A stretch of DNA of 64,000 bases from Litorivicinus sp. (GTDB lineage: Bacteria > Pseudomonadota > Gammaproteobacteria > Pseudomonadales > Litorivicinaceae): the NCBI GenBank assembly GCA_028339155.1, contig JAOLBK010000002.1, positions 51,366 to 115,365 of the forward strand, read 5' to 3'. Below, piece by piece: positions 11,157 to 63,639 of this stretch (position 1 is its first letter; every line of letters starts with the position of its first letter). The notes under the pieces were generated by a model. It had not been told where the DNA came from and did no database searches. It saw only the letters and a program-made list of their open reading frames with translations. The translations under genes were made by a program, and so were the position numbers.

Positions 11157-12239
11157 ATGGCGCTTGAAATGATCATCGGTAAAAGCCGAGAGGTTAGTGA
11201 ATTGCGTGGCTTAATACGTCAGGCAGCAAAATCCGATGCGAGTGTTCTTATTCTCGGGGAAAGTGGAACCGGCAAGGAATTGGTGGCGAAGGCGTTGCAT
11301 GCTGGATCGGCCCGCTCAGCTAAACAATTTGTCCCAGTGAACTGTGGTGCGATTCCATCTGAGCTGCTTGAATCTGAGTTGTTTGGCCACAAAAAAGGTG
11401 CTTTTACGGGCGCGATTTCGGATCGAGTGGGCCGTTTTGAACTGGCTAGTAAGGGAACGCTATTTCTTGATGAAATTGGCGATATGCCGCTCGAAATGCA
11501 GGTTAAACTGCTTCGTGTTCTGCAAGAGCGCTCGGTAGACCCGGTTGGGTCAAGCCGGTCCGTTGCTATTGATGTGCGCGTGGTCGCAGCCACACATCGA
11601 AATCTCGAGATGCATATTGAAAAAGGGATGTTTCGTGAGGATCTCTTTTACCGTCTTAATGTCATCCCGATTGTTTTGCCCAGTTTAAGGGAGCGAAAGC
11701 AGGATATTCCTGAATTGATTAATCATTTCATAAACCAGCACAGGGTCGAGCATGGTCGACCAACATTTGATGCTGATTTATTTGAAGCGCTGTGCGAGTA
11801 CGAGTGGCCAGGAAATATCCGAGAACTCTTAAATCTTGTACACCGATTATGTTGTTTCTTTCCAAACCAAAAGATTGCGCTTTCCAAAATCCCAGCGAGT
11901 TTACTTCCGGGACCTATCGCTCCTTACGGAGCGAGACACTCATCGGCATTCATAGACGGAGCACCTCAGCAGTCAGAACTTGATTTATCACTATTTGAGC
12001 CAGAGGCAGCCAATCCAGTTGAGGATGTCATCATGCGGGCTCAGAGCAGCAATCCGGGGTCTGACAATAATCTTCCTGAGAGCGGATTGAATCTGAAAGA
12101 TCATTTAGCCGATATCGAGAAGAATCTAATCATCAAAGCGCTGCAAGAGTCCGATGGAAATGTGTCGCAATCGGCAAGACTTTTGAATTTGCAGCGGACT
12201 ACGCTTATTGAGAAAATAAATAAATACAAGCTCGCTTAA
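11157..12239 (+). CDS. FleQ/FlrA-like sigma-54 activator lacking the N-terminal domain
   Basis: The 360-residue protein begins directly with the AAA+ domain. Walker A GESGTGKE is at 34-41, the sigma-54 contact loop GAFTGA at 81-86, Walker B TLFLDEIGD follows, and the domain runs to about residue 240. A linker and a C-terminal Fis-type helix-turn-helix (VSQSARLLNLQRTTLIEKINKY, about 335-356) come next. That end is characteristic of FleQ/FlrA, the polar flagellar master regulator. FleQ is normally about 490 residues; the regulatory N-domain and the FleQ arm that carries the LFRS c-di-GMP switch are absent here. An in-frame stop at 11124-11126 excludes a longer start. It probably activates the sigma-54 promoters listed in this annotation. 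Confidence 0.85.
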   Translation: MALEMIIGKSREVSELRGLIRQAAKSDASVLILGESGTGKELVAKALHAGSARSAKQFVPVNCGAIPSELLESELFGHKKGAFTGAISDRVGRFELASKGTLFLDEIGDMPLEMQVKLLRVLQERSVDPVGSSRSVAIDVRVVAATHRNLEMHIEKGMFREDLFYRLNVIPIVLPSLRERKQDIPELINHFINQHRVEHGRPTFDADLFEALCEYEWPGNIRELLNLVHRLCCFFPNQKIALSKIPASLLPGPIAPYGARHSSAFIDGAPQQSELDLSLFEPEAANPVEDVIMRAQSSNPGSDNNLPESGLNLKDHLADIEKNLIIKALQESDGNVSQSARLLNLQRTTLIEKINKYKLA

Positions 12240-45039: not shown

Positions 45040-48000
45040 ATGTCATTCTTTACTTCGCTGACCGGCCTTAATGCAGCAACAACGCAGTTGTCCGTGACCT
45101 CGAACAATATTGCAAACGCCGGCACAACAGGTTTTAAACGCTCACGGTCAGACTTTGGCGACATCTTTGCGACGTCCCCACTCCAAAAGGCGTCCACAGT
45201 GGTTGGCCAGGGAACGGCGTTGAAGCAAGTGACACAAGAGTTTTCCCAGGGCAACATTGAATTGTCTGGAAATTCGTTGGACTTGGCAGTAACGGGAGAG
45301 GGTTTCTTTCCTTTGCGGTCTTCTGATGGCCAGGATTTGTTTACCCGAAACGGGTCCTTTTTATTGGACGAGCAAAATACCGTTGTGAACTCGGCGGGAC
45401 AGTATCTAAAGGTGGCATCGGTTGATTCCCTTGGTAAGGCTGACTTTAAAGCTGAGCTCGTACCACTAACGATAAATCCAGCGACTATTGGAGAGGCAAT
45501 TGCCTCGTCGGAAATTGATTTCAATATTAACTTCCCGGCTGAATCTTTGCCGTTGACAGTCGTCGACGAGAATGGCCTGGAAAAGATCAAAGACTTTAAT
45601 CCGAACGATGCGACTACGTATGCGAAGTCGGCAGCCATCACAATTTATGATGAAAATGGTAACGATTTCTTACTGACCTTTTATTATCGTCGTGTCCAAG
45701 TTGCCTCTGCTGCTGAGCCGAGCAACAAATGGCAAACGCATGTTGTTTTGGGTGGCCAGGAAATCCAACCAGCACTTGGCCAGGCGACTACGTCGGATGG
45801 AACTCCGCTATTTGTCGATAAGTATGGGGCAATTGTGCCTGAAGATGAGTTGCCAGTTGTTTTGAACGATAACCTTGTGTTCAGTAAGTTTAATTTGGAT
45901 GACTTGTCTGATCCGGATGTTTCGGTACCAGCAACCGCCATCAGTGGTCTTGTTGAAATGCCATATTTGAGTGATGAAGCTGGCGTTAATTTTGCGGCAG
46001 TGAATGCCTCCCAAACCCTTTCAATTGATGCTGATGAGCTTGCGAATATTTCGAAAAATGATGTGATCGAGCTTCAGATGACTGATGACGATGGTGTCTC
46101 ACTTGGAATTCTAACAACTCGGGCTGTGGCGTCTGCAAGGTTGACGCTTGTCGATAATGACCAGATTGAAGCGGGTGATGTCGTGTCCCTAACCCTGGTT
46201 GATGACAATGAGTTCACTCAGACGATTACGACTGCTGGTCTTGTAGCCGATCTCAATGCATCAGAAATCACGGCACTGAATGTTGTGGATGCTTTAAATG
46301 CCGCGCATTCAGCAAAAACCAATATTGATGTTACAAATATCGGCACGATTGCGTTTCCAGATTCAGTTGAGTTTGTCGTGACGGATTCGGATGGTGTGCG
46401 AGCCCGTCTCAGAACGCCGCCTGGGTTTGCGAATGGAGGCGCTGCGCAAACGATCGCTGACCTGGCTGCTGCATTAGATGCGCAGCAGTTTTCGGTAGAA
46501 AAGTCGATCGATTTGGCAAATCTTGATGTGGTGGCTAATGGCGAGCAAATCAGCTTTGAAGTTCAAGATGAAGACGGTAACGCGGTAACGCTGACCACCG
46601 GCGTGATTGCAGATGTGACTGATTTGGCCATGGCTGACGTGGTTACGTTGATGAATGCAGATGCCGAGGCCAATGGTTACGCGTATACGATTTCTTCGGT
46701 GAACAACACGCTGCTTGTCACTCATACCTCGGAGACTCCATTTATTGTGAGTGATGCTGAAGACAATGGCTTTAACTTAGTCGCTGATGCTACGTTCACA
46801 ATGAATTCCACTGGTGCTTCTGACCCTTATACCGTCGCTGTGAATGCTGGGAGTATCGAAATACTGAGTAATAATGACAAGTCGTTTCGAGTCAGTATTG
46901 GTGCTAATCATTCGGTCTTGGTGGGAACTACAACATTCTCAGAGAATATATCAGCCGTGACGCCTACTCTGATGACGACCGCCGATACCGATCTGGTTCC
47001 GTTTTACACTTTTAGTGTGCCTGAAGAGATGACGAGTACGGATGAGGATCCAATTTATATAAATCCTTCAATGATTCAGGTCACTCGACAAGATGGAACG
47101 AATTTCAATATGGCGTTGTCTTCAGATCATGATCTTGGAGGGGACGCTGCGCTCTTTCAGCACATTGGAATTTATGATTCAGAAGAGGAAACGATTGACT
47201 CGGGAGAACTGACTCAGTCTGCGACTGCCTTCACAAAAAATGGGTACGAGTTATCGACTGCATCAAGCGTTTCTCAGATTGTTGAAGCGCTTCAGCGCTC
47301 GGCAGCAGGAACTGATTTCTCGGTAATGATTGACCCCGCTAATGCAACAAGCATTAAAGTCTCGAATGAGACAGGTATTAATTTTCAGGTCGGTACATCG
47401 CGAGTTCCTGGCGCTACGACTAATTTAATTTCTGGTATTTTAGCGAATGGATCTCAAGCCACAATCACTGACACGATTCTCACTGCAGTCTCGACTGATG
47501 GCAGTTTGGCTCCGGATTTATCGGCAGCCTTCGATTTAACCATTGATGAAGATCCTGAGGATAAAATCGCGACCGATTCATTAACAATTGATCTGTCGGT
47601 ATTGAGTGATCCTGAAAACTCTGCGTTGTCGGGTAGTGAAGTTGCCACGTTGATGACGCAAGAGATTAATCGTCAGTTCGGAGATCAGCGCTATTTTGAT
47701 TTGTCGTCTGATGCGTCAAGACAGTTCAGAATGACTTTTGATCCACTCAACGAAGATCCTAAAATCATCGATATTTATCTTCCTGAGTCAGAGTTCTATA
47801 CCTCGGATACTTTGGCCACTGCAATTGAAGCAAAACTTCAGGCTGCGACAGGAACGCATATTGGGGTCAGGTACAGTAACAATGTAAAGGGGTTCGTCTT
47901 TTCCCCCGACAATGATGCGACAAAGTTGAGAATTACTAATGTTCCAGCCGAGGCCTCTCTTACCGGGTCTGCAGTGCCAAACGTATTATTTGGATTGGAC

Positions 48001-49383
48001 ACGTTATCGACCAATTTCTTACTTGGGTCGACTGGAACGTATCCTGCTGAGGTGATCTCTAACGGCGAGACCATACTCTCTGATGAGGGTGATGAACGGT
48101 TTGGCATCAAGGTAAACTTCTTGCCCAATACGGAAGAGGGTGGCACTGGTGGTTCCTTTACCATTGCAAGCGGTCAAACGGGCGATAATTCAGCAATTCG
48201 CATCGAAAATATCTCTGATGCGGCGAAACAATATTTTGGATTCGACCCTGACAATGCTTCGGCAGTTCTTGAGGTCATCGCTGAGAGCGGTGCTTCAGCA
48301 GTTCGCGGGGTTCAATCAACAGCTGCCAAGGTATTTGGCAAGCCTGTGAGCGTCGATCCAGACGAAACGTTCTTCATCGATGATCTGAGTAATCAGTTTA
48401 CTGTGACCGCAGACTCGGTCTCAGAAACATTTCGTTTGCCGGTTGGCAACTACAACCTCAATAGTTTCAAAAATGCTCTGCAAAATCGTATTAATGCAAT
48501 GGAAGATGCTCGAGGAAACTCAATTTCTGGGGTTCGCGTAGATTTTGATCAAACGAACGAAATATTTAACTTTACGTCAGGTACGACCGGCGATTCATCA
48601 TTCTTTCAGATTTCTGGGTCGGCTCGATTTGGCCTTCAAGGAATCGAATCAAATGTTGGTCAAACGTCAACATTCCGACCACCTGTCGCGGAGCAAACTG
48701 CAAATGGTAGGCCGGTATACGTGACCAAAGACGAAAATGGGGTGTTCCGGGAATACAGTACCGATACCACGACAGGGCTGTCCGAACTGCCAGGTAGCCG
48801 CGAGTTTAATAATGATCCCGAGTATCGGCCTTTGTTCTTAGATAAGGGCGAATTAACCTTTGATACGGCAGGTAATTTGATTTCGCCCCTTGGTGGAATT
48901 TCATTGGATAATGTTGTGATCGGTGGTTCTGGTAATACCCTTAATATCGATATTGCTTATATTGGATCAACGCAGTTCTCAGGTGACTTTTCGGTCAACT
49001 CCCAGGGCCAGAACGGCCAGCCAAATGGATCGCTTGTGGCGGTTGATATTGCTGATGACGGTCTCGTCACCGCTTCGTACTCAAATGGTACTCAGGATCT
49101 GAAAGGAAAAATCGTACTTGCCACTTTTTCGACACCCAATGGATTGCGTCAATTAGGTGACTCAACCTTCCTTGAGTCCAATGAATCCGGTACTCCATCG
49201 CTTGGTGAGCCTGGTGGTGCAGGCTTTGGCACGATCCGTGCAGGTGCTAGGGAAAGAGCGAATGTGGATTTGACGTCAGAACTGGTTGATTTGATTACCG
49301 CCCAGCGGAATTTCCAGGCCAATGCGAAAGCAATTGAAACGTCATCAACACTTACGTCAACGATTATTAACATTAGGAGCTAA
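45040..49383 (+). CDS. flgE: Giant flagellar hook protein FlgE (1447 residues)
   Basis: The protein has standard ends and a very large insert. The N-terminus (LTGLNAATTQLSVTSNNIAN, TGFKRSRSDFGDIF, then GNSLDLAVTGEGFFPL) is typical FlgE. An early D2-type segment is present (ITIYDENGNDFLLTFYYRR, about 195-213). From about residue 250 to 1265 there is roughly 1000 residues of beta-rich, Asp/Thr-rich sequence, including three to four diverged repeats of 55-65 residues (46021-46680). The ordinary C-terminus returns near residue 1268 (LTFDTAGNLISPLGGI; LVDLITAQRNFQANAKAIE). The usual length is 400-450. No frame break is seen. Surface-exposed hook domains are predicted to be greatly enlarged. Confidence 0.92.
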   Translation: MSFFTSLTGLNAATTQLSVTSNNIANAGTTGFKRSRSDFGDIFATSPLQKASTVVGQGTALKQVTQEFSQGNIELSGNSLDLAVTGEGFFPLRSSDGQDLFTRNGSFLLDEQNTVVNSAGQYLKVASVDSLGKADFKAELVPLTINPATIGEAIASSEIDFNINFPAESLPLTVVDENGLEKIKDFNPNDATTYAKSAAITIYDENGNDFLLTFYYRRVQVASAAEPSNKWQTHVVLGGQEIQPALGQATTSDGTPLFVDKYGAIVPEDELPVVLNDNLVFSKFNLDDLSDPDVSVPATAISGLVEMPYLSDEAGVNFAAVNASQTLSIDADELANISKNDVIELQMTDDDGVSLGILTTRAVASARLTLVDNDQIEAGDVVSLTLVDDNEFTQTITTAGLVADLNASEITALNVVDALNAAHSAKTNIDVTNIGTIAFPDSVEFVVTDSDGVRARLRTPPGFANGGAAQTIADLAAALDAQQFSVEKSIDLANLDVVANGEQISFEVQDEDGNAVTLTTGVIADVTDLAMADVVTLMNADAEANGYAYTISSVNNTLLVTHTSETPFIVSDAEDNGFNLVADATFTMNSTGASDPYTVAVNAGSIEILSNNDKSFRVSIGANHSVLVGTTTFSENISAVTPTLMTTADTDLVPFYTFSVPEEMTSTDEDPIYINPSMIQVTRQDGTNFNMALSSDHDLGGDAALFQHIGIYDSEEETIDSGELTQSATAFTKNGYELSTASSVSQIVEALQRSAAGTDFSVMIDPANATSIKVSNETGINFQVGTSRVPGATTNLISGILANGSQATITDTILTAVSTDGSLAPDLSAAFDLTIDEDPEDKIATDSLTIDLSVLSDPENSALSGSEVATLMTQEINRQFGDQRYFDLSSDASRQFRMTFDPLNEDPKIIDIYLPESEFYTSDTLATAIEAKLQAATGTHIGVRYSNNVKGFVFSPDNDATKLRITNVPAEASLTGSAVPNVLFGLDTLSTNFLLGSTGTYPAEVISNGETILSDEGDERFGIKVNFLPNTEEGGTGGSFTIASGQTGDNSAIRIENISDAAKQYFGFDPDNASAVLEVIAESGASAVRGVQSTAAKVFGKPVSVDPDETFFIDDLSNQFTVTADSVSETFRLPVGNYNLNSFKNALQNRINAMEDARGNSISGVRVDFDQTNEIFNFTSGTTGDSSFFQISGSARFGLQGIESNVGQTSTFRPPVAEQTANGRPVYVTKDENGVFREYSTDTTTGLSELPGSREFNNDPEYRPLFLDKGELTFDTAGNLISPLGGISLDNVVIGGSGNTLNIDIAYIGSTQFSGDFSVNSQGQNGQPNGSLVAVDIADDGLVTASYSNGTQDLKGKIVLATFSTPNGLRQLGDSTFLESNESGTPSLGEPGGAGFGTIRAGARERANVDLTSELVDLITAQRNFQANAKAIETSSTLTSTIINIRS
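46021..46680 (+). repeat. Diverged tandem repeats in the FlgE insert
   Basis: Three to four units share the pattern of a DxVxLxVTDxDG-type strand, a Thr/Arg strand and a short Ala/Leu helix, such as DVVSLTLVDDNEFTQTITTAG, DSVEFVVTDSDGVRARLRTP and EQISFEVQDEDGNAVTLTTG. Each unit is about 55-65 residues. They look like stacked beta domains within the hook surface insert. Confidence 0.6.
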
Positions 49384-58552: not shown

Positions 58553-61500
58553 ATGGCATTAACAGTAAACACCAACGTACTTGCATTAAACGCACAACGT
58601 CATTCGGCGGCGACACAGACCGAAATGGCTTCGGCCATGGAACGCCTTGCATCTGGTAAGCGCATCAATAGTGCGGTCGATGATGCGGCGGGTCTCGCGA
58701 TCAGTGCCCGGATGGAGGCCCAGATCTCTGGTCTTGCCCAGGCAGTACGAAACGCGGGTGATGCCATTTCTTTGGTCAATACGGCTGAGGGCTCCTTGCA
58801 AGAAACAACTTCGATTTTGCAGCGAATCCGGGAACTGTCAATCCAGTCAGCGGGTGGCGCGCCATCTAATTCTGATCGGGTCAATCTAAATAAGGAAGTG
58901 ATCCAGCTTCAAGAAGAGCTTCAACGAATTACAACCACGACTCGCTTTAATGGCGAACTTCTTCTGAACGGAACATTCCATGATAAGACCTTCCAGATCG
59001 GACAAACAAATAACGAAGAAATTACCGTTAATATTGGTGATCTTAGACCGACTAATATTGGTGCATACACTCAAAATACGCTGAGTAACGCCGGGTACAT
59101 TAATGTTGGTGATGCCGTTAAGGACATGACTAACGGGGTAAATAACCAAACACTGACACTAGCGGTTGGCAACGAAGTGCCGCGCATTGTTCAGATTAAT
59201 ATGAGTGACAGCGCTCGTGTAATCTCAGACAAACTCAATCAGTCCGGTGCACAAATAAATTCGCGTGCAACCACAACACTTGACGCCTACGTCACGGGTG
59301 AGGGTAGTTTTTCATTTTCCTTATCTTCTGATTCGGTATCGGGTGACTTGAGTGATGTGGTGACGGTTGGTGGTACCGCGGCATCCAAAGCGCACTCAAT
59401 GGCTGCAGGAATTAATGCGAAGTATTCAGACCACAATATTTCTGCGACTGTCGAGATTGATGATAATGGCGATGAGTTCGTTCGGATGTTTCAGAATCAG
59501 GGGTTCGATATTCAAATCGATGATTTTGTGACGGCCGGAACTACGGGATTAGACTTGGCGGGTAACGGTACGACTGAGCTGACTGGTGCATACAATGCAA
59601 CGGCGGCAATTGCTGGTGGACAACTGATTATTGATGCGCCTCAATCATTTTTAATTTCGTCAGACGATACTGAGAATACGATTTTAGTTGGGACCCGGGC
59701 CTCGATGGAGGTTCAGGCAGTGAGTTCTGTTCCGACTGATTATCAGGATTTGACGTTTGATGTGGCCGTTAACGGCGTCACGCAAACGATTAATCTTTCT
59801 GCACCACCACCAGATACTGAGATTTCAGCAACGAGTGCAGTTGTGCCAATGACGTTTGTAGGAACTGAACAAACCCAGGCCGCTTCCGGGCAGCAGGTCG
59901 GTGCCTTCCGCCCAGCAACTTATGCTGTGGGTCCGCTTACATTAAGAACTGGTGATGACGTTGGTGATAAAACGACACAGTTTTCACTGAACATAAACAG
60001 TCTGAGTCGTCAGGACTTTGACATTGCTCAAGCATTGACAGATTTGGGTGTTGGGACTGATGCGTCGCCATTTACGGTAGCAACGGGCGACGTCACTGTA
60101 ATGACTGCAACGAACCCGACTGCGACAAATAACATCACGATCACTGCGCATGATTATATAACGGGTGATAAAATAACTTATGACTCGGAAGGCGGAGCTG
60201 CGATTACAGGACTGACTGATGGTGAGGAATACTACGCAATCAGGGTAGATGCCAATACCATCAGGATTGCAGAAACGTTTGCTGAGGCGAATAACGAGAT
60301 TCCTGTTGTGCTGGGCGGAACAGGTAACTCAGCGCAAACCTTCACGAAGAACGCATATATATCAGCAACTGATTTAGTGTCTGCGATGCAGACTACGATT
60401 GATGAAAATGGTTTGTTGACTGGTGACCACGCGGTGACTGTCTCCGTTAATGACTCTGGTCAGATTGAAATGACCGTGGCAGGTGGTGCCGGAACGATTG
60501 ATTTTGCAGAACACTCAAACCAGCTTGCAGCCACTGTTAAGACTGTGGCGGCGGCTGATGTCACTGTTGCTGACGATACAGTGACCATTACGAATCACGG
60601 ATTTGTTACTGGTGACGAGGTGACGTACGGCGATGGGGGCGGTCTCGCTCTGGCGGGCTTGACTAATGCAACAAAGTATTACGTGATACGCCAAAGCGAT
60701 GACACCATTGAGCTTGCAGCTACGAAGCAAGATGCGTTTGCAGACACAGAAATTACCTTAACAGGTCCGGGTAATGATGCTCAGACTTTTACCAAGGCAG
60801 CGGCAGATGGTATGGCCGCGTTCTTGATTAAGAGTACGAAGGCAGACGATGGTGCCGCAATTGAGAGCGGGACTGGGGGCACGGTTATTCTTGGCGCGGC
60901 CGATAACTTGGCCAATGGAGACTCAACAACTCTGGGATTGGTAAAACCGTTTGGAGTTGATACAAAAATTGTTGCTGGAACCCAGGCGAATACGATTGGC
61001 ACCGGTGATGTTGTTATTAATGGAGCTGGAACTGGTGCCACGGAAGATGCGGTTACAATCACAGATCACGGGTATGCCTCGGGCCAGAAACTGACCTACG
61101 AGGCCAACGCAGGAACTGTATTGGCAGGACTTGCGGACGAAACTGATTATTATGTAATCAAGATTGATTCTGACACGATCCGGTTGGCGGAATCTTATGC
61201 CGATGCGATGGCAGGTAACGAAATCACGTTGACGGGCACTGGAAACAATGCGCAAAGTCTGACTAATTCGAATGATACATTTACAATTGCGATGAACGGC
61301 GGAGCGCCAACCACGGTTGATGTTGCCGACGACACGTATTACTCGATGGACCAGTTAGCGATCGCTGTCCAGGCAGCCATCGATGACAGTCCGTTTACAC
61401 AGCTTGGTAATTTTCCGGTAATTGTGAATGTCACAACGGACTCTAATGGTGATCAGGGAATTACGTTTGCCAGTGCCGATGGACACAGCATTGAACTCGG

Positions 61501-63601
61501 GGGCACAGAATTTTTATCTGACGCAGGCGCTCTTAATATCAATCCGGCGGCAACTGCACCTGATGTTGGTGCACTTACTGACCGGACGTATGGGGCAACT
61601 TTGAACACTGACACGATCGCCACGGGTGACGTCGCCACTCTCACGGATACTATTACAGAGAACGGTCACGGTCTGGTCACGGGTGACGTGGTTCAATACA
61701 GTGCAGAGGGCGGAACCGCGATCTCAGGGTTGACGGATGGCGAGTACTATTATGTCATTCGGGTTGATGCTAACGATTATCAGCTTGCGACGTCGGAGGC
61801 TAACGCAACCGCGAGCACGGCAATTACCTTGGCTGGTACGGGCAACAATGCGCAAACCTTCACAAATATTACCTCAGACAAAGAGACTAAGTTTGCTATT
61901 AGCGTCAATGGAAGTAGTTTTATTGACCTGGACATGGCCAACCAAATGACGCTTGCGGGCGCTGATGCGAGCGTTACGAGTGTTCAGTTTGTGGCGGCGC
62001 TACAGGCGACGATTGATGCAAGTGGTGCGTTTACTGACGACAACGCTGTGACCGTTTCTGTGACTGATCAGGGTTTGGTAAAGCTGGATATGGCTGGTGG
62101 TTCTGGGACGATTGTCCTTCGTGAGCACAGTGACACAATTGCTGCGGGTAACGATGGTCTGGTTGAAACACTGACTGGGCGTAATGCAAATGATGGAACG
62201 ACTAATCTGTCAACTGTGTCCAGTGGTGGTGCATCACAAGCATCAACGACCGGCTCACTAACTTTAGGCTCAGAAGCCAACGATGCGATTATAGCGGATG
62301 GCAATACGTCAGCCACCGCGACTTACGTCAAAACGTTCGGTGTGGCACCAATCACACTTGATGCATCTAACAATACTCTAGTAATTGAACTGAATGCCTC
62401 AGGTACAACAACAAGTCTGAGCATTGCAGCGGGTTCTTATACGACAATGGCCCAACTAGCGGCCGCGGCACAGGATGCGGTGGACGGCAGCGCACAGCTA
62501 TCGCCCCACGTAACAGTAGAAGCTATGCAGGACTCGGCCTCTCCGTATGGATGGGGTCTGAAGTTTACAGAGAACAGCGGAAGAGCAATTGCGTACAGCG
62601 GCACATTTGTGACAGATGCAAATGCGCTAAACGGAGCTGCCGGCACGGTGGCCGCCTCTCAAACAGGCGAAGACCCATTCGGTGTTGCGGCAAATCGTTC
62701 GGCAGTTGATGCTGGCATTTACTCCAATGGCGTTGATTTAAGCGTGGACAATACGGTCACGCTTGAGGTGATTGACAATGTGACCGGAACAATCAGTCAG
62801 CAGGTGCTGACACTCGATAGTTCAAGCGCGTCGGTATCGTTTTCTGATTATGCCGATTTGGTGACAAGTTCCGCGAACACCGCATTTATAACCGAAGGAT
62901 TTACTTTTGAGACTGGGGGCACTGATTCATCACTCACCCTGTCGATGGTGCCTGCTGGCGATTATACGGTGTCATTAACGGGAACGTCTGCTACTGAAGC
63001 GTTTGGGGCACCCGTGACCGGAACCGGAACACCGTCTAATATGGATGGTTACGTGTTCGATTCAATGGATGACGTGGTCTCTGAAATGAACGCTGAGTTT
63101 GCAGCGGCCGGGCTCGGTCTGGTTGTTTCTTACAGCCGTGGCGGAGATACGTTCACGTTCGCGGTAACTGAGGGACGCGCAGATGCATCAAACACACTTT
63201 CGTTTTCTGGTGAGGATCTCGCACGTATTGGGATGCTCGGGGATTTGACAGCGGTTGGTGGAGGCACTGAGCCGACCGAAACCGTGCGTTATGTGTCTCA
63301 GATTGATATTTCAACACGCGAGTCAGCGGTCTTATCTATGACGGTTGTGGATGCAGCATTGGAAACATTGGCCGGGACGAGAGCAGGCTTGGGTGCTGTG
63401 GCGAATCGATTGGAGTCGACAATTTCGAACCTAATGAACATCTCAGAGAATACATCTGAATCAATGTCCAGAGTAATGGATGCCGACTTTGCGGCAGAGT
63501 CGACCCGACTGGCGAGGGCTCAGATTCTTCAAGAGGCATCGGTTGCGATGCTGGCCCAGGCAAACTCCGCAGCACAGAGTGTGCTAAAGCTTTTGCAATA
63601 A
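58553..63601 (+). CDS. fliC: Giant flagellin (1682 residues)
   Basis: A GTG-led frame starts at 58520, but ATG 58553 gives the flagellin start ALTVNTNVLALNAQRHSAAT. The D0/D1 N-domain (to about residue 180, with MERLASGKRINSAVDDAAGL and LQRIRELSIQSAGG) and C-domain (about 1587-1682, with LGAVANRLESTISNLMNISEN and ILQEASVAMLAQANSAAQSVL) are intact. About 1400 residues of beta-rich, Thr/Asp/Ala/Gly-rich sequence lie between them, compared with 100-200 in ordinary flagellins. Four ~75-residue repeats with GLTDGxxYYVIxVDxxTIxLA-type cores occupy 527-600, 675-750, 832-906 and 1032-1106; such repeats are common in large bacterial adhesins. Giant flagellins that form thick filaments are known in some marine gammaproteobacteria. 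No frame break is seen. Confidence 0.93.
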   Translation: MALTVNTNVLALNAQRHSAATQTEMASAMERLASGKRINSAVDDAAGLAISARMEAQISGLAQAVRNAGDAISLVNTAEGSLQETTSILQRIRELSIQSAGGAPSNSDRVNLNKEVIQLQEELQRITTTTRFNGELLLNGTFHDKTFQIGQTNNEEITVNIGDLRPTNIGAYTQNTLSNAGYINVGDAVKDMTNGVNNQTLTLAVGNEVPRIVQINMSDSARVISDKLNQSGAQINSRATTTLDAYVTGEGSFSFSLSSDSVSGDLSDVVTVGGTAASKAHSMAAGINAKYSDHNISATVEIDDNGDEFVRMFQNQGFDIQIDDFVTAGTTGLDLAGNGTTELTGAYNATAAIAGGQLIIDAPQSFLISSDDTENTILVGTRASMEVQAVSSVPTDYQDLTFDVAVNGVTQTINLSAPPPDTEISATSAVVPMTFVGTEQTQAASGQQVGAFRPATYAVGPLTLRTGDDVGDKTTQFSLNINSLSRQDFDIAQALTDLGVGTDASPFTVATGDVTVMTATNPTATNNITITAHDYITGDKITYDSEGGAAITGLTDGEEYYAIRVDANTIRIAETFAEANNEIPVVLGGTGNSAQTFTKNAYISATDLVSAMQTTIDENGLLTGDHAVTVSVNDSGQIEMTVAGGAGTIDFAEHSNQLAATVKTVAAADVTVADDTVTITNHGFVTGDEVTYGDGGGLALAGLTNATKYYVIRQSDDTIELAATKQDAFADTEITLTGPGNDAQTFTKAAADGMAAFLIKSTKADDGAAIESGTGGTVILGAADNLANGDSTTLGLVKPFGVDTKIVAGTQANTIGTGDVVINGAGTGATEDAVTITDHGYASGQKLTYEANAGTVLAGLADETDYYVIKIDSDTIRLAESYADAMAGNEITLTGTGNNAQSLTNSNDTFTIAMNGGAPTTVDVADDTYYSMDQLAIAVQAAIDDSPFTQLGNFPVIVNVTTDSNGDQGITFASADGHSIELGGTEFLSDAGALNINPAATAPDVGALTDRTYGATLNTDTIATGDVATLTDTITENGHGLVTGDVVQYSAEGGTAISGLTDGEYYYVIRVDANDYQLATSEANATASTAITLAGTGNNAQTFTNITSDKETKFAISVNGSSFIDLDMANQMTLAGADASVTSVQFVAALQATIDASGAFTDDNAVTVSVTDQGLVKLDMAGGSGTIVLREHSDTIAAGNDGLVETLTGRNANDGTTNLSTVSSGGASQASTTGSLTLGSEANDAIIADGNTSATATYVKTFGVAPITLDASNNTLVIELNASGTTTSLSIAAGSYTTMAQLAAAAQDAVDGSAQLSPHVTVEAMQDSASPYGWGLKFTENSGRAIAYSGTFVTDANALNGAAGTVAASQTGEDPFGVAANRSAVDAGIYSNGVDLSVDNTVTLEVIDNVTGTISQQVLTLDSSSASVSFSDYADLVTSSANTAFITEGFTFETGGTDSSLTLSMVPAGDYTVSLTGTSATEAFGAPVTGTGTPSNMDGYVFDSMDDVVSEMNAEFAAAGLGLVVSYSRGGDTFTFAVTEGRADASNTLSFSGEDLARIGMLGDLTAVGGGTEPTETVRYVSQIDISTRESAVLSMTVVDAALETLAGTRAGLGAVANRLESTISNLMNISENTSESMSRVMDADFAAESTRLARAQILQEASVAMLAQANSAAQSVLKLLQ
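60131..61870 (+). repeat. Four adhesin-type repeats in the flagellin insert
   Basis: Copies lie at 60131-60352, 60575-60802, 61046-61270 and 61646-61870 (about 74-76 residues each). The shared core is HGxxTGDxVxY, then AGLTDxxxYYVI, then DTIxLAxSxADA and ITLTGTGNNAQTFT. The spacers between copies are not equal. A second module follows copies 1 and 4: VSAMQTTIDENGLLTGDHAV (from about 60374) and VAALQATIDASGAFTDDNAV (from about 61987), each leading to a GGAGTIDF/GGSGTIVL strand. Confidence 0.8.
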
Positions 63602-63639
63602 TGGTCGATGACCTGGATTAGCAGGGTGAAGGAATAGAA

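What the first reader, a model, noticed from the sequence alone, without database searches (positions are those of the whole stretch)
58553..63601. Giant 1682-residue flagellin
Normal D0/D1 ends enclose about 1400 inserted residues in one uninterrupted frame. Giant flagellins with thick filaments are known in a few marine gammaproteobacteria, but this is at the large end. The surface domain would dominate the filament and change hydrodynamics or adhesion.
Basis: partly seen in the sequence, partly recalled or inferred. Interest (0 to 1): 0.8.

Follow-up and report, generated by a model that had tools for sequence, protein, structure and literature searches.

The report
Giant flagellin carrying phage-tail modules
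A marine bacterium encodes a 1,682-residue flagellin, over three times the size of the textbook one, whose middle holds four copies of a domain shared with phage tail proteins, and its hook and junction proteins are oversized too, which would give the cell an unusually thick and possibly sticky flagellum.

Summary
Confirmed, and richer than reported. Window 58553-63601 is one open frame of 1682 aa with flagellin ends. It is no assembly error: full-length orthologs (1589-1667 aa) were read in six relatives, among them the isolate HIMB30 and three single-cell genomes, and whole-gene dN/dS is about 0.04-0.05. The host is an OM252/"Ca. Halomarinus" (Litorivicinaceae) bacterium.

New points. (1) The insert holds four copies of an about 85-residue beta module found in marine phage baseplate, tail-fibre and other virion proteins. 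In this family all 50 detected copies (10 of 25 genomes) lie in flagellin, hook (FlgE) or cap (FliD). (2) Hook (FlgE 1447 aa), FlgK (1152) and FlgL (529) are enlarged as well; across the order hook and flagellin length rise together (Spearman 0.66, 90 genomes), an open question in the 2018 giant-flagellin paper. (3) There are two large flagellins: this giant, with a conserved sigma54-like site, and an 858-aa partner with a sigma28-like site, so the giant is likely made first, next to the hook.

Giant flagellins are known; eight other large flagellins of the order that I compared share only the ends. Filament width, binding and expression are untested.

The parts
58553..63601 (+). flaA, giant flagellin, 1682 aa
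58553..59083 (+). D0/D1 N-terminal part, residues 1-177
   Evidence: PF00669 5-141; flagellin structures match 1-177 and beyond
59084..60073 (+). first part of the insert, residues 178-507; residues up to 353 align with an ordinary 491-aa flagellin of the order (41% over 1-353)
60074..60352 (+). module M1, residues 508-600
60356..60541 (+). spacer repeat, residues 602-663, similar to 1142-1198
60542..60799 (+). module M2, residues 664-749
60992..61270 (+). module M3, residues 814-906
61271..61594 (+). spacer repeat, residues 907-1014, similar to 1273-1362
61613..61867 (+). module M4, residues 1021-1105; up to 61% identical to a viral-contig protein; structure predicted (pLDDT 96)
62369..62638 (+). 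spacer repeat, residues 1273-1362
62669..63334 (+). last part of the insert, residues 1373-1594, no relative found outside FlaA
63338..63595 (+). C-terminal D1/D0 part, residues 1596-1681
   Evidence: PF00700
58469..58484 (+). sigma54-like promoter site 84 nt before flaA (one mismatch)
45040..49383 (+). flgE, enlarged hook protein, 1447 aa
53252..56710 (+). flgK, enlarged junction protein, 1152 aa
56720..58309 (+). flgL, enlarged junction protein, 529 aa
63640..63999 (+). fliD, filament cap, runs past the window end; 471 aa in all, no module in this species
11157..12239 (+). sigma54-dependent activator
   Evidence: PF00158
12387..13814 (+). sigma54-dependent activator
   Evidence: PF00158
31538..32251 (-). 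FliA-type (sigma28) sigma factor; the name is my reading of a 237-aa sigma70-family protein in the flagellar cluster
   Evidence: PF04542, PF04539, PF04545

Best explanation
This is a conserved giant flagellin whose 1,454-residue insert holds four phage-virion-type beta modules and which would form a thick, likely surface-binding coat on a flagellum whose hook, FlgK and FlgL proteins are enlarged too. SHOWN: the frame, its orthologs and selection, the module repeats, their occurrence in phage virion proteins and in other flagellar axial proteins (FlgE, FliD) of the genus, the enlarged hook and junction genes, two large flagellin genes with different promoter-like sites. PREDICTED: the module fold. 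INFERRED: the D0/D1 ends polymerise as in other flagellins and the modules project outward as beads; sigma54 likely drives flaA before the hook is finished, so FlaA is likely laid down first, next to the giant hook, while sigma28-driven FlaB (858 aa) makes the outer part, as shown for the two flagellins of Shewanella putrefaciens (PMC6299084, passages). The modules likely give weak glycan or particle binding besides bulk, because their other homes are phage baseplates and tail fibres, PilY1-like pilus proteins and a giant adhesin-like frame. The module most likely moved between phage and flagellar genes by domain insertion; the direction is not settled.
For: Frame and ends; full-length orthologs in six relatives incl. 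an isolate and three single-cell genomes; dN/dS 0.041-0.052. Four module copies, 40-50% identical. PHROG baseplate wedge E 4e-34 and tail fibre E 1e-24; 46 and 90 of 50,697 phage records; 31 and 15 viral-contig loci, up to 61% identity. Module model pLDDT 96.2, 45 viral model matches at E 1e-3 or better. 50 of 50 copies found in 25 family genomes lie in FlaA (26), FlgE (14) or FliD (10) (with 17, 19); clean presence/absence at two different loops of FliD. Hook co-enlargement: Spearman 0.66 over 90 genomes, 0.69 over 31 family medians. sigma54-like site 84-88 nt before flaA in 9 of 11, sigma28-like site 82-96 nt before flaB in 7 of 8.
Confidence: 0.6

Rival explanations
1. The insert is purely mechanical: bulky beads make filament and hook thicker and stiffer for swimming, with no binding role; the module is used only because it folds well and tolerates insertion.
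For: Flagellin and hook length rise together across the order, in families whose flagellins lack the module. The authors of PMC6248924 offer stiffness as one possible reason.
Against: In this genus the same module, not just any filler, recurs in flagellin, hook and cap, and its other homes are surface and virion proteins.
Confidence: 0.35
2. FlaA is a minor or silent flagellin and the filament is made mainly of the 858-aa FlaB.
For: A second flagellin gene with a good sigma28-like site exists; in S. putrefaciens the FliA-dependent flagellin makes most of the filament (PMC6299084, passages). G008 has two flagellins of 851 and 887 aa and no FlaA.
Against: Strong purifying selection on all of FlaA and a conserved promoter-like site speak against silence; a minor, hook-proximal share would fit the best explanation too.
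Confidence: 0.15
3. The giant frame is an assembly artefact or a decaying gene.
For: The window is from a draft of 34 contigs, 87.8% complete; repeats can mis-assemble; FlaA is split in G011.
Against: Same four-module order in an isolate and three single-cell genomes, a 1681-aa protein at 90% identity elsewhere, dN/dS about 0.04-0.05.
Confidence: 0.02

Closest known systems
Giant flagellins of Bermanella marisrubri (1,020 aa) and Oleibacter marinus (1,190 aa), PMC6248924 (parts 1-3 of 4 read)
   Same: Flagellin ends around a very large surface insert in marine Oceanospirillales; filaments of at least 30 nm shown there
   Different: Their insert is described as tandem DE regions with a DX insert without homologs elsewhere; here the insert carries phage-type modules, the first and last parts of the insert show no similarity to each other, and there is a second large flagellin. 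Their sequences were not fetched by name.
FlaA/FlaB pair of Shewanella putrefaciens, PMC6299084 (passages)
   Same: One flagellin with a FliA-independent, one with a FliA-dependent promoter; the first sits next to the hook
   Different: There the flagellins are not described as giant in the passages seen; here the order of assembly is only inferred from promoter-like sites
Module of marine T4-like phage baseplate wedge and tail-fibre proteins (PHROG 2885, 38233)
   Same: Same sequence family and predicted fold
   Different: Here it sits inside flagellin, hook and cap proteins of a bacterium
Ig-like domains of phage structural proteins (recalled; only a search listing seen)
   Same: A surface domain that turns up inserted in unrelated virion proteins
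   Different: Another domain family; I recall no case of it spread over the axial proteins of one flagellum

Membership tests
Bacterial flagellin | Flagellin_N and Flagellin_C at the two ends | tested here: met
   PF00669 5-141 and PF00700 1596-1681, both over the cut-off
Bacterial flagellin | Exported and polymerised into the filament | not testable with these tools
   needs EM or mass spectrometry
Giant flagellin (over 1000 aa, as in PMC6248924) | Length over 1000 aa | tested here: met
   1682 aa
Giant flagellin with tandem DE regions and DX insert (PMC6248924) | Two similar DE regions | tested here: inconclusive
   Residues 178-400 and 1373-1594 show no similarity (hhalign probability 0.4%, but the alignments are shallow); the published DE model was not available
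Giant flagellin with tandem DE regions and DX insert (PMC6248924) | Insert similar to other large flagellins of the order | tested here: inconclusive
   Eight flagellins of 976-1202 aa match FlaA only at 1-174 and 1569-1682, but they are unnamed and Bermanella's own was not fetched; a 491-aa one (L140) aligns over 1-353
Phage baseplate wedge / tail fibre module | Sequence match to phage virion families | tested here: met
   PHROG 2885 and 38233, four stretches each; phage records
Phage baseplate wedge / tail fibre module | Predicted fold shared with phage virion proteins | tested here: met
   45 viral models at E 1e-3 or better; best an uncharacterised phage protein E 1.4e-7 TM 0.90, next a baseplate wedge initiator E 1.3e-6 TM 0.88
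Pfam E1_FCCH (PF16190) or End_beta_barrel (PF12195) | Score over the curated cut-off in FlaA | tested here: not met
   Neither is listed for P0001 at E 10; End_beta_barrel is weak and under the cut-off in the relative P0003, and E1_FCCH is over it in P0044 and P0066
FCCH / phage endosialidase beta-barrel fold | Structural match standing clear of chance | tested here: inconclusive

The most novel reading that the evidence does not exclude
A phage virion surface domain has colonised the bacterial flagellum: the same mobile beta module has been inserted again and again into flagellin, hook and cap (and, in other lineages, FlgK) of marine bacteria, turning the outer flagellum into a thick, phage-tail-like adhesive fibre.
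Probability: 0.4. Interest if true: 0.85.

Novelty: new variant of a known kind. Interest (0 to 1): 0.66.

Why it matters
[quoted passage not shown] Here, and across the sampled order, hook protein length follows flagellin length, which makes that question answerable from genomes. The shared module gives a concrete account of how this giant flagellin grew, by insertion of domains that also occur in phage virions, and an isolate with the same four-module array (HIMB30) makes width, composition and binding directly testable. If FlaA is exported, the flagellar type III channel would be handling a 172-kDa flagellin.

Tried and rejected

Length correlation, rows dropped: of 145 genomes searched, 108 had PF00669 and 104 PF07559 matches; 92 were used, the rest lacking one of the two, having their flagellin row in the unlisted tail, or having the hook or flagellin gene cut or split (e.g. 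G001, G011, G045, G123, G134). One flagellin frame (G074, 1247) was too long by an upstream extension; the protein is 491 aa, corrected, which also leaves out the own family. Lengths are open-frame lengths and related species are not independent; hence the family medians. Exceptions: G072 (flagellin 1016, FlgE 698), G151 (509, 1054), G103 (320, 975).

Literature: searches listed no paper that by title or abstract start treats phage-type modules in flagellar proteins or enlarged hook proteins. Only that library was searched, and besides four papers only listings were seen: PMC6248924 (parts 1-3 of 4), PMC7018530 (one passage), PMC8269220 (12 of 34 places) and PMC6299084 (12 of 18 places).

Full report
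WHAT IS THERE. The frame at 58553-63601 codes for 1682 residues without a stop; 172 kDa, pI 4.05, no cysteine. Flagellin_N covers 5-141 and Flagellin_C 1596-1681. The gene sits in a flagellar cluster in the order flgD-flgE-flgF-flgG-flgH-flgI-flgJ-flgK-flgL-flaA-fliD; flgE, flgK, flgL, flaA and fliD are named by Pfam, the others by my reading of the translations. The window is part of contig C12 of a 1.88-Mb, 34-contig genome, 87.8% complete.

WHO IT IS. A relative protein is named Litorivicinus sp. (P0009). G001, in the same genus by the tool's kinship column, has a 105,536-base contig, the length of AGIG01000017.1 of 'Gamma proteobacterium HIMB30'; G014, G015 and G016 have contigs with the lengths of single-cell genomes 'uncultured Litoricola' AG-898-O07, AG-900-B21 and AG-905-C17. 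HIMB30 is an isolate of the OM252 clade, 'Ca. Halomarinus', in which 18 genomes have genes for flagellar biosynthesis and one strain, LSUCC0096, shows a possible polar flagellum by SEM (PMC8269220, 12 of 34 places seen). Those passages say nothing on flagellin size.

IT IS REAL AND CONSERVED. Of 25 genomes of the family 14 have a PF00669 match. Full-length FlaA was read in six besides this one: 1667 aa in G001, G014, G015 and G016, 1590 in G003, 1589 in G006. FlaA is cut by contig ends in G004, G009 and G021, split between two frames in G011, and absent in G008, which has two flagellins of 851 and 887 aa instead. A search with the insert found 42 proteins (only the 7995 best candidates scored): 38 flagellins, the longest 1681 aa at 90% identity, and four others. 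dN/dS for the whole gene is 0.041 (G014/G016), 0.043 (G003/G006) and 0.052 (G001/G016); in the last pair the pieces of the insert lie at 0.015-0.115 (one not estimable) and the ends at 0.023-0.025, so the insert is somewhat less constrained than the ends but clearly under purifying selection. One 62-codon piece reaches 0.41 in G014/G016. Synonymous change is saturated against the window's own gene.

THE SAME MODULE IS IN OTHER FLAGELLAR PROTEINS. A search of the 25 family genomes gave 50 matches in 10 genomes; all 50 fall in FlaA (26), FlgE (14) or FliD (10) frames (placed). Five FlgE frames outside the fetched stretches (G001:C9, G003:C14, G005, G007, G014:C41) and one at the edge of one (G006) were recognised by sharing contig and frame length with a FlgE match. 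In FliD the insertions are clean: one copy in one loop of G001, three in tandem in another loop of G014-16, none in G000, G003, G006, G008 and G011 (nine sequences). The protein database adds 12 FliD proteins of 741-833 aa; the six whose copies I printed have three or four. Outside the family: a flagellin of 1133 aa with nine copies (P0039); two partial flagellin C-terminal proteins with six matches each (P0066, P0068); three proteins whose C-terminal part matches FlgK at 25-28% identity (P0140, P0147, P0151); and a FlgE-like frame on a contig labelled SAR116 (L134). In a sample of 293 genomes of the order, 9 have matches, 4 of these in this genus; the others are a 9270-aa frame with nine copies, two PilY1-like proteins (recognised by eye), a 3566-aa frame, and one marginal hit. 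So in this genus the module is tied to the outer flagellum, while elsewhere it is found in surface and virion proteins.

THE HOOK IS ENLARGED TOO. FlgE is 1447 aa, FlgK 1152 and FlgL 529; FliD is 471. FlgK matches in 12 genomes of the genus lie in frames of 1152-1161 aa in 10, of 888 (G005) and 913 (G018) in two; one in the sister genus is 658. In the order, flagellin and FlgE frame lengths correlate: Spearman 0.67 over 92 genomes in 32 families, and, without the own family and with one corrected length, 0.66 over 90 genomes and 0.69 over 31 family medians; 7 of 8 genomes with flagellin frames of 1000 or more have FlgE frames of 1000 or more, against 4 of 82 others. Eight such large flagellins that I read (976-1202 aa) have no module match at E 1 and share only the ends with FlaA, while an ordinary 491-aa flagellin (L140) aligns with FlaA residues 1-353. 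The enlargement of the hook is thus more general than the module.

TWO FLAGELLINS, TWO PROMOTER-LIKE SITES. The second flagellin (858 aa, 88 kDa) starts 2.5 kb past the end of flaA. A sigma54-like site (TGGCA[C/T]-N5-TCGC) lies 84-88 nt before flaA in 9 of 11 genes; scores of 9 or more of 10, as in the window, came up in 3 of 950 base-shuffled upstream regions and of 8 or more in 30. A sigma28-like site with an 11-base gap lies 82-96 nt before flaB in 7 of 8 genes, scoring 11-14 of 16; 12 or more came up in 45 of 950 shuffles and 13 or more in 3. In the window the sigma54 pattern with at most one mismatch occurs 5 times against 1.5 expected. The window has two sigma54 activators and a sigma70-family factor that I read as FliA. 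In S. putrefaciens the FliA-independent flagellin sits next to the hook and the FliA-dependent one makes most of the filament (PMC6299084, 12 of 18 places seen). I infer the same order here.

HOW IT LIKELY WORKS. FlaA likely polymerises by its normal ends; the insert would stand out as beads and give a filament near 38 nm if packed as in Bermanella, with a wide range (27-51 nm; rough). Next to it sits an enlarged hook and junction. The modules likely give weak binding to glycans or particles. This last step rests on the company the module keeps and is the least certain; pure bulk is the main rival.

NOVELTY. Giant flagellins and thick filaments are known (PMC6248924, parts 1-3 read). What my searches of the library did not list is the phage-type module in flagellin, hook and cap, or the parallel growth of hook and flagellin; the 2018 authors ask whether other parts are correspondingly large. 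I rate it a new variant of a known kind.

Noticed in passing
L004:9276-9335 (contig C12, upstream of flaB, outside the window): A perfect tandem repeat, unit ATATCTCAC, 6.7 copies, lies about 180 bases before the start of flaB; a possible site of slippage.
   Followed up: no
L004:14835-19892 (contig C12, past flaB): Genes of a sugar pathway follow the flagellins: NeuB family, cytidylyltransferase, DegT aminotransferase and a Polysacc_synt_2 dehydratase, as expected for nonulosonic-acid glycosylation of flagellin.
   Followed up: partly
L051 (G003), L052 (G006), L049 (G011): Relatives carry further flagellar genes of ordinary size: G003 has FlgL-, FliD- and flagellin-like genes of 304, 536 and 273 aa on another contig; short flagellins also in G006 and G011. 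Possibly a second flagellar system.
   Followed up: no
L005 (C12:128109-133576): Two neighbouring genes of 816 and 823 aa share identical last 60 residues; function not looked up.
   Followed up: no
L057 (G072): A 9270-aa open frame in another family of the order holds nine module copies in tandem and looks like a giant adhesin.
   Followed up: partly
L134: A contig labelled SAR116 cluster single cell encodes a large FlgE-like frame with one module, 37-46% identical to the FlgE of this genus; either an independent insertion, transfer, or a mislabelled contig.
   Followed up: partly
window 60000-61430 (flaA residues 481-960): Between HIMB30 and the single-cell genomes this stretch has about half the four-fold-site divergence of the ends, as if exchanged as a cassette.
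   Followed up: partly
window 63585-63611: A sigma28-like site (13 of 16) overlaps the 3' end of flaA just before fliD.
   Followed up: no
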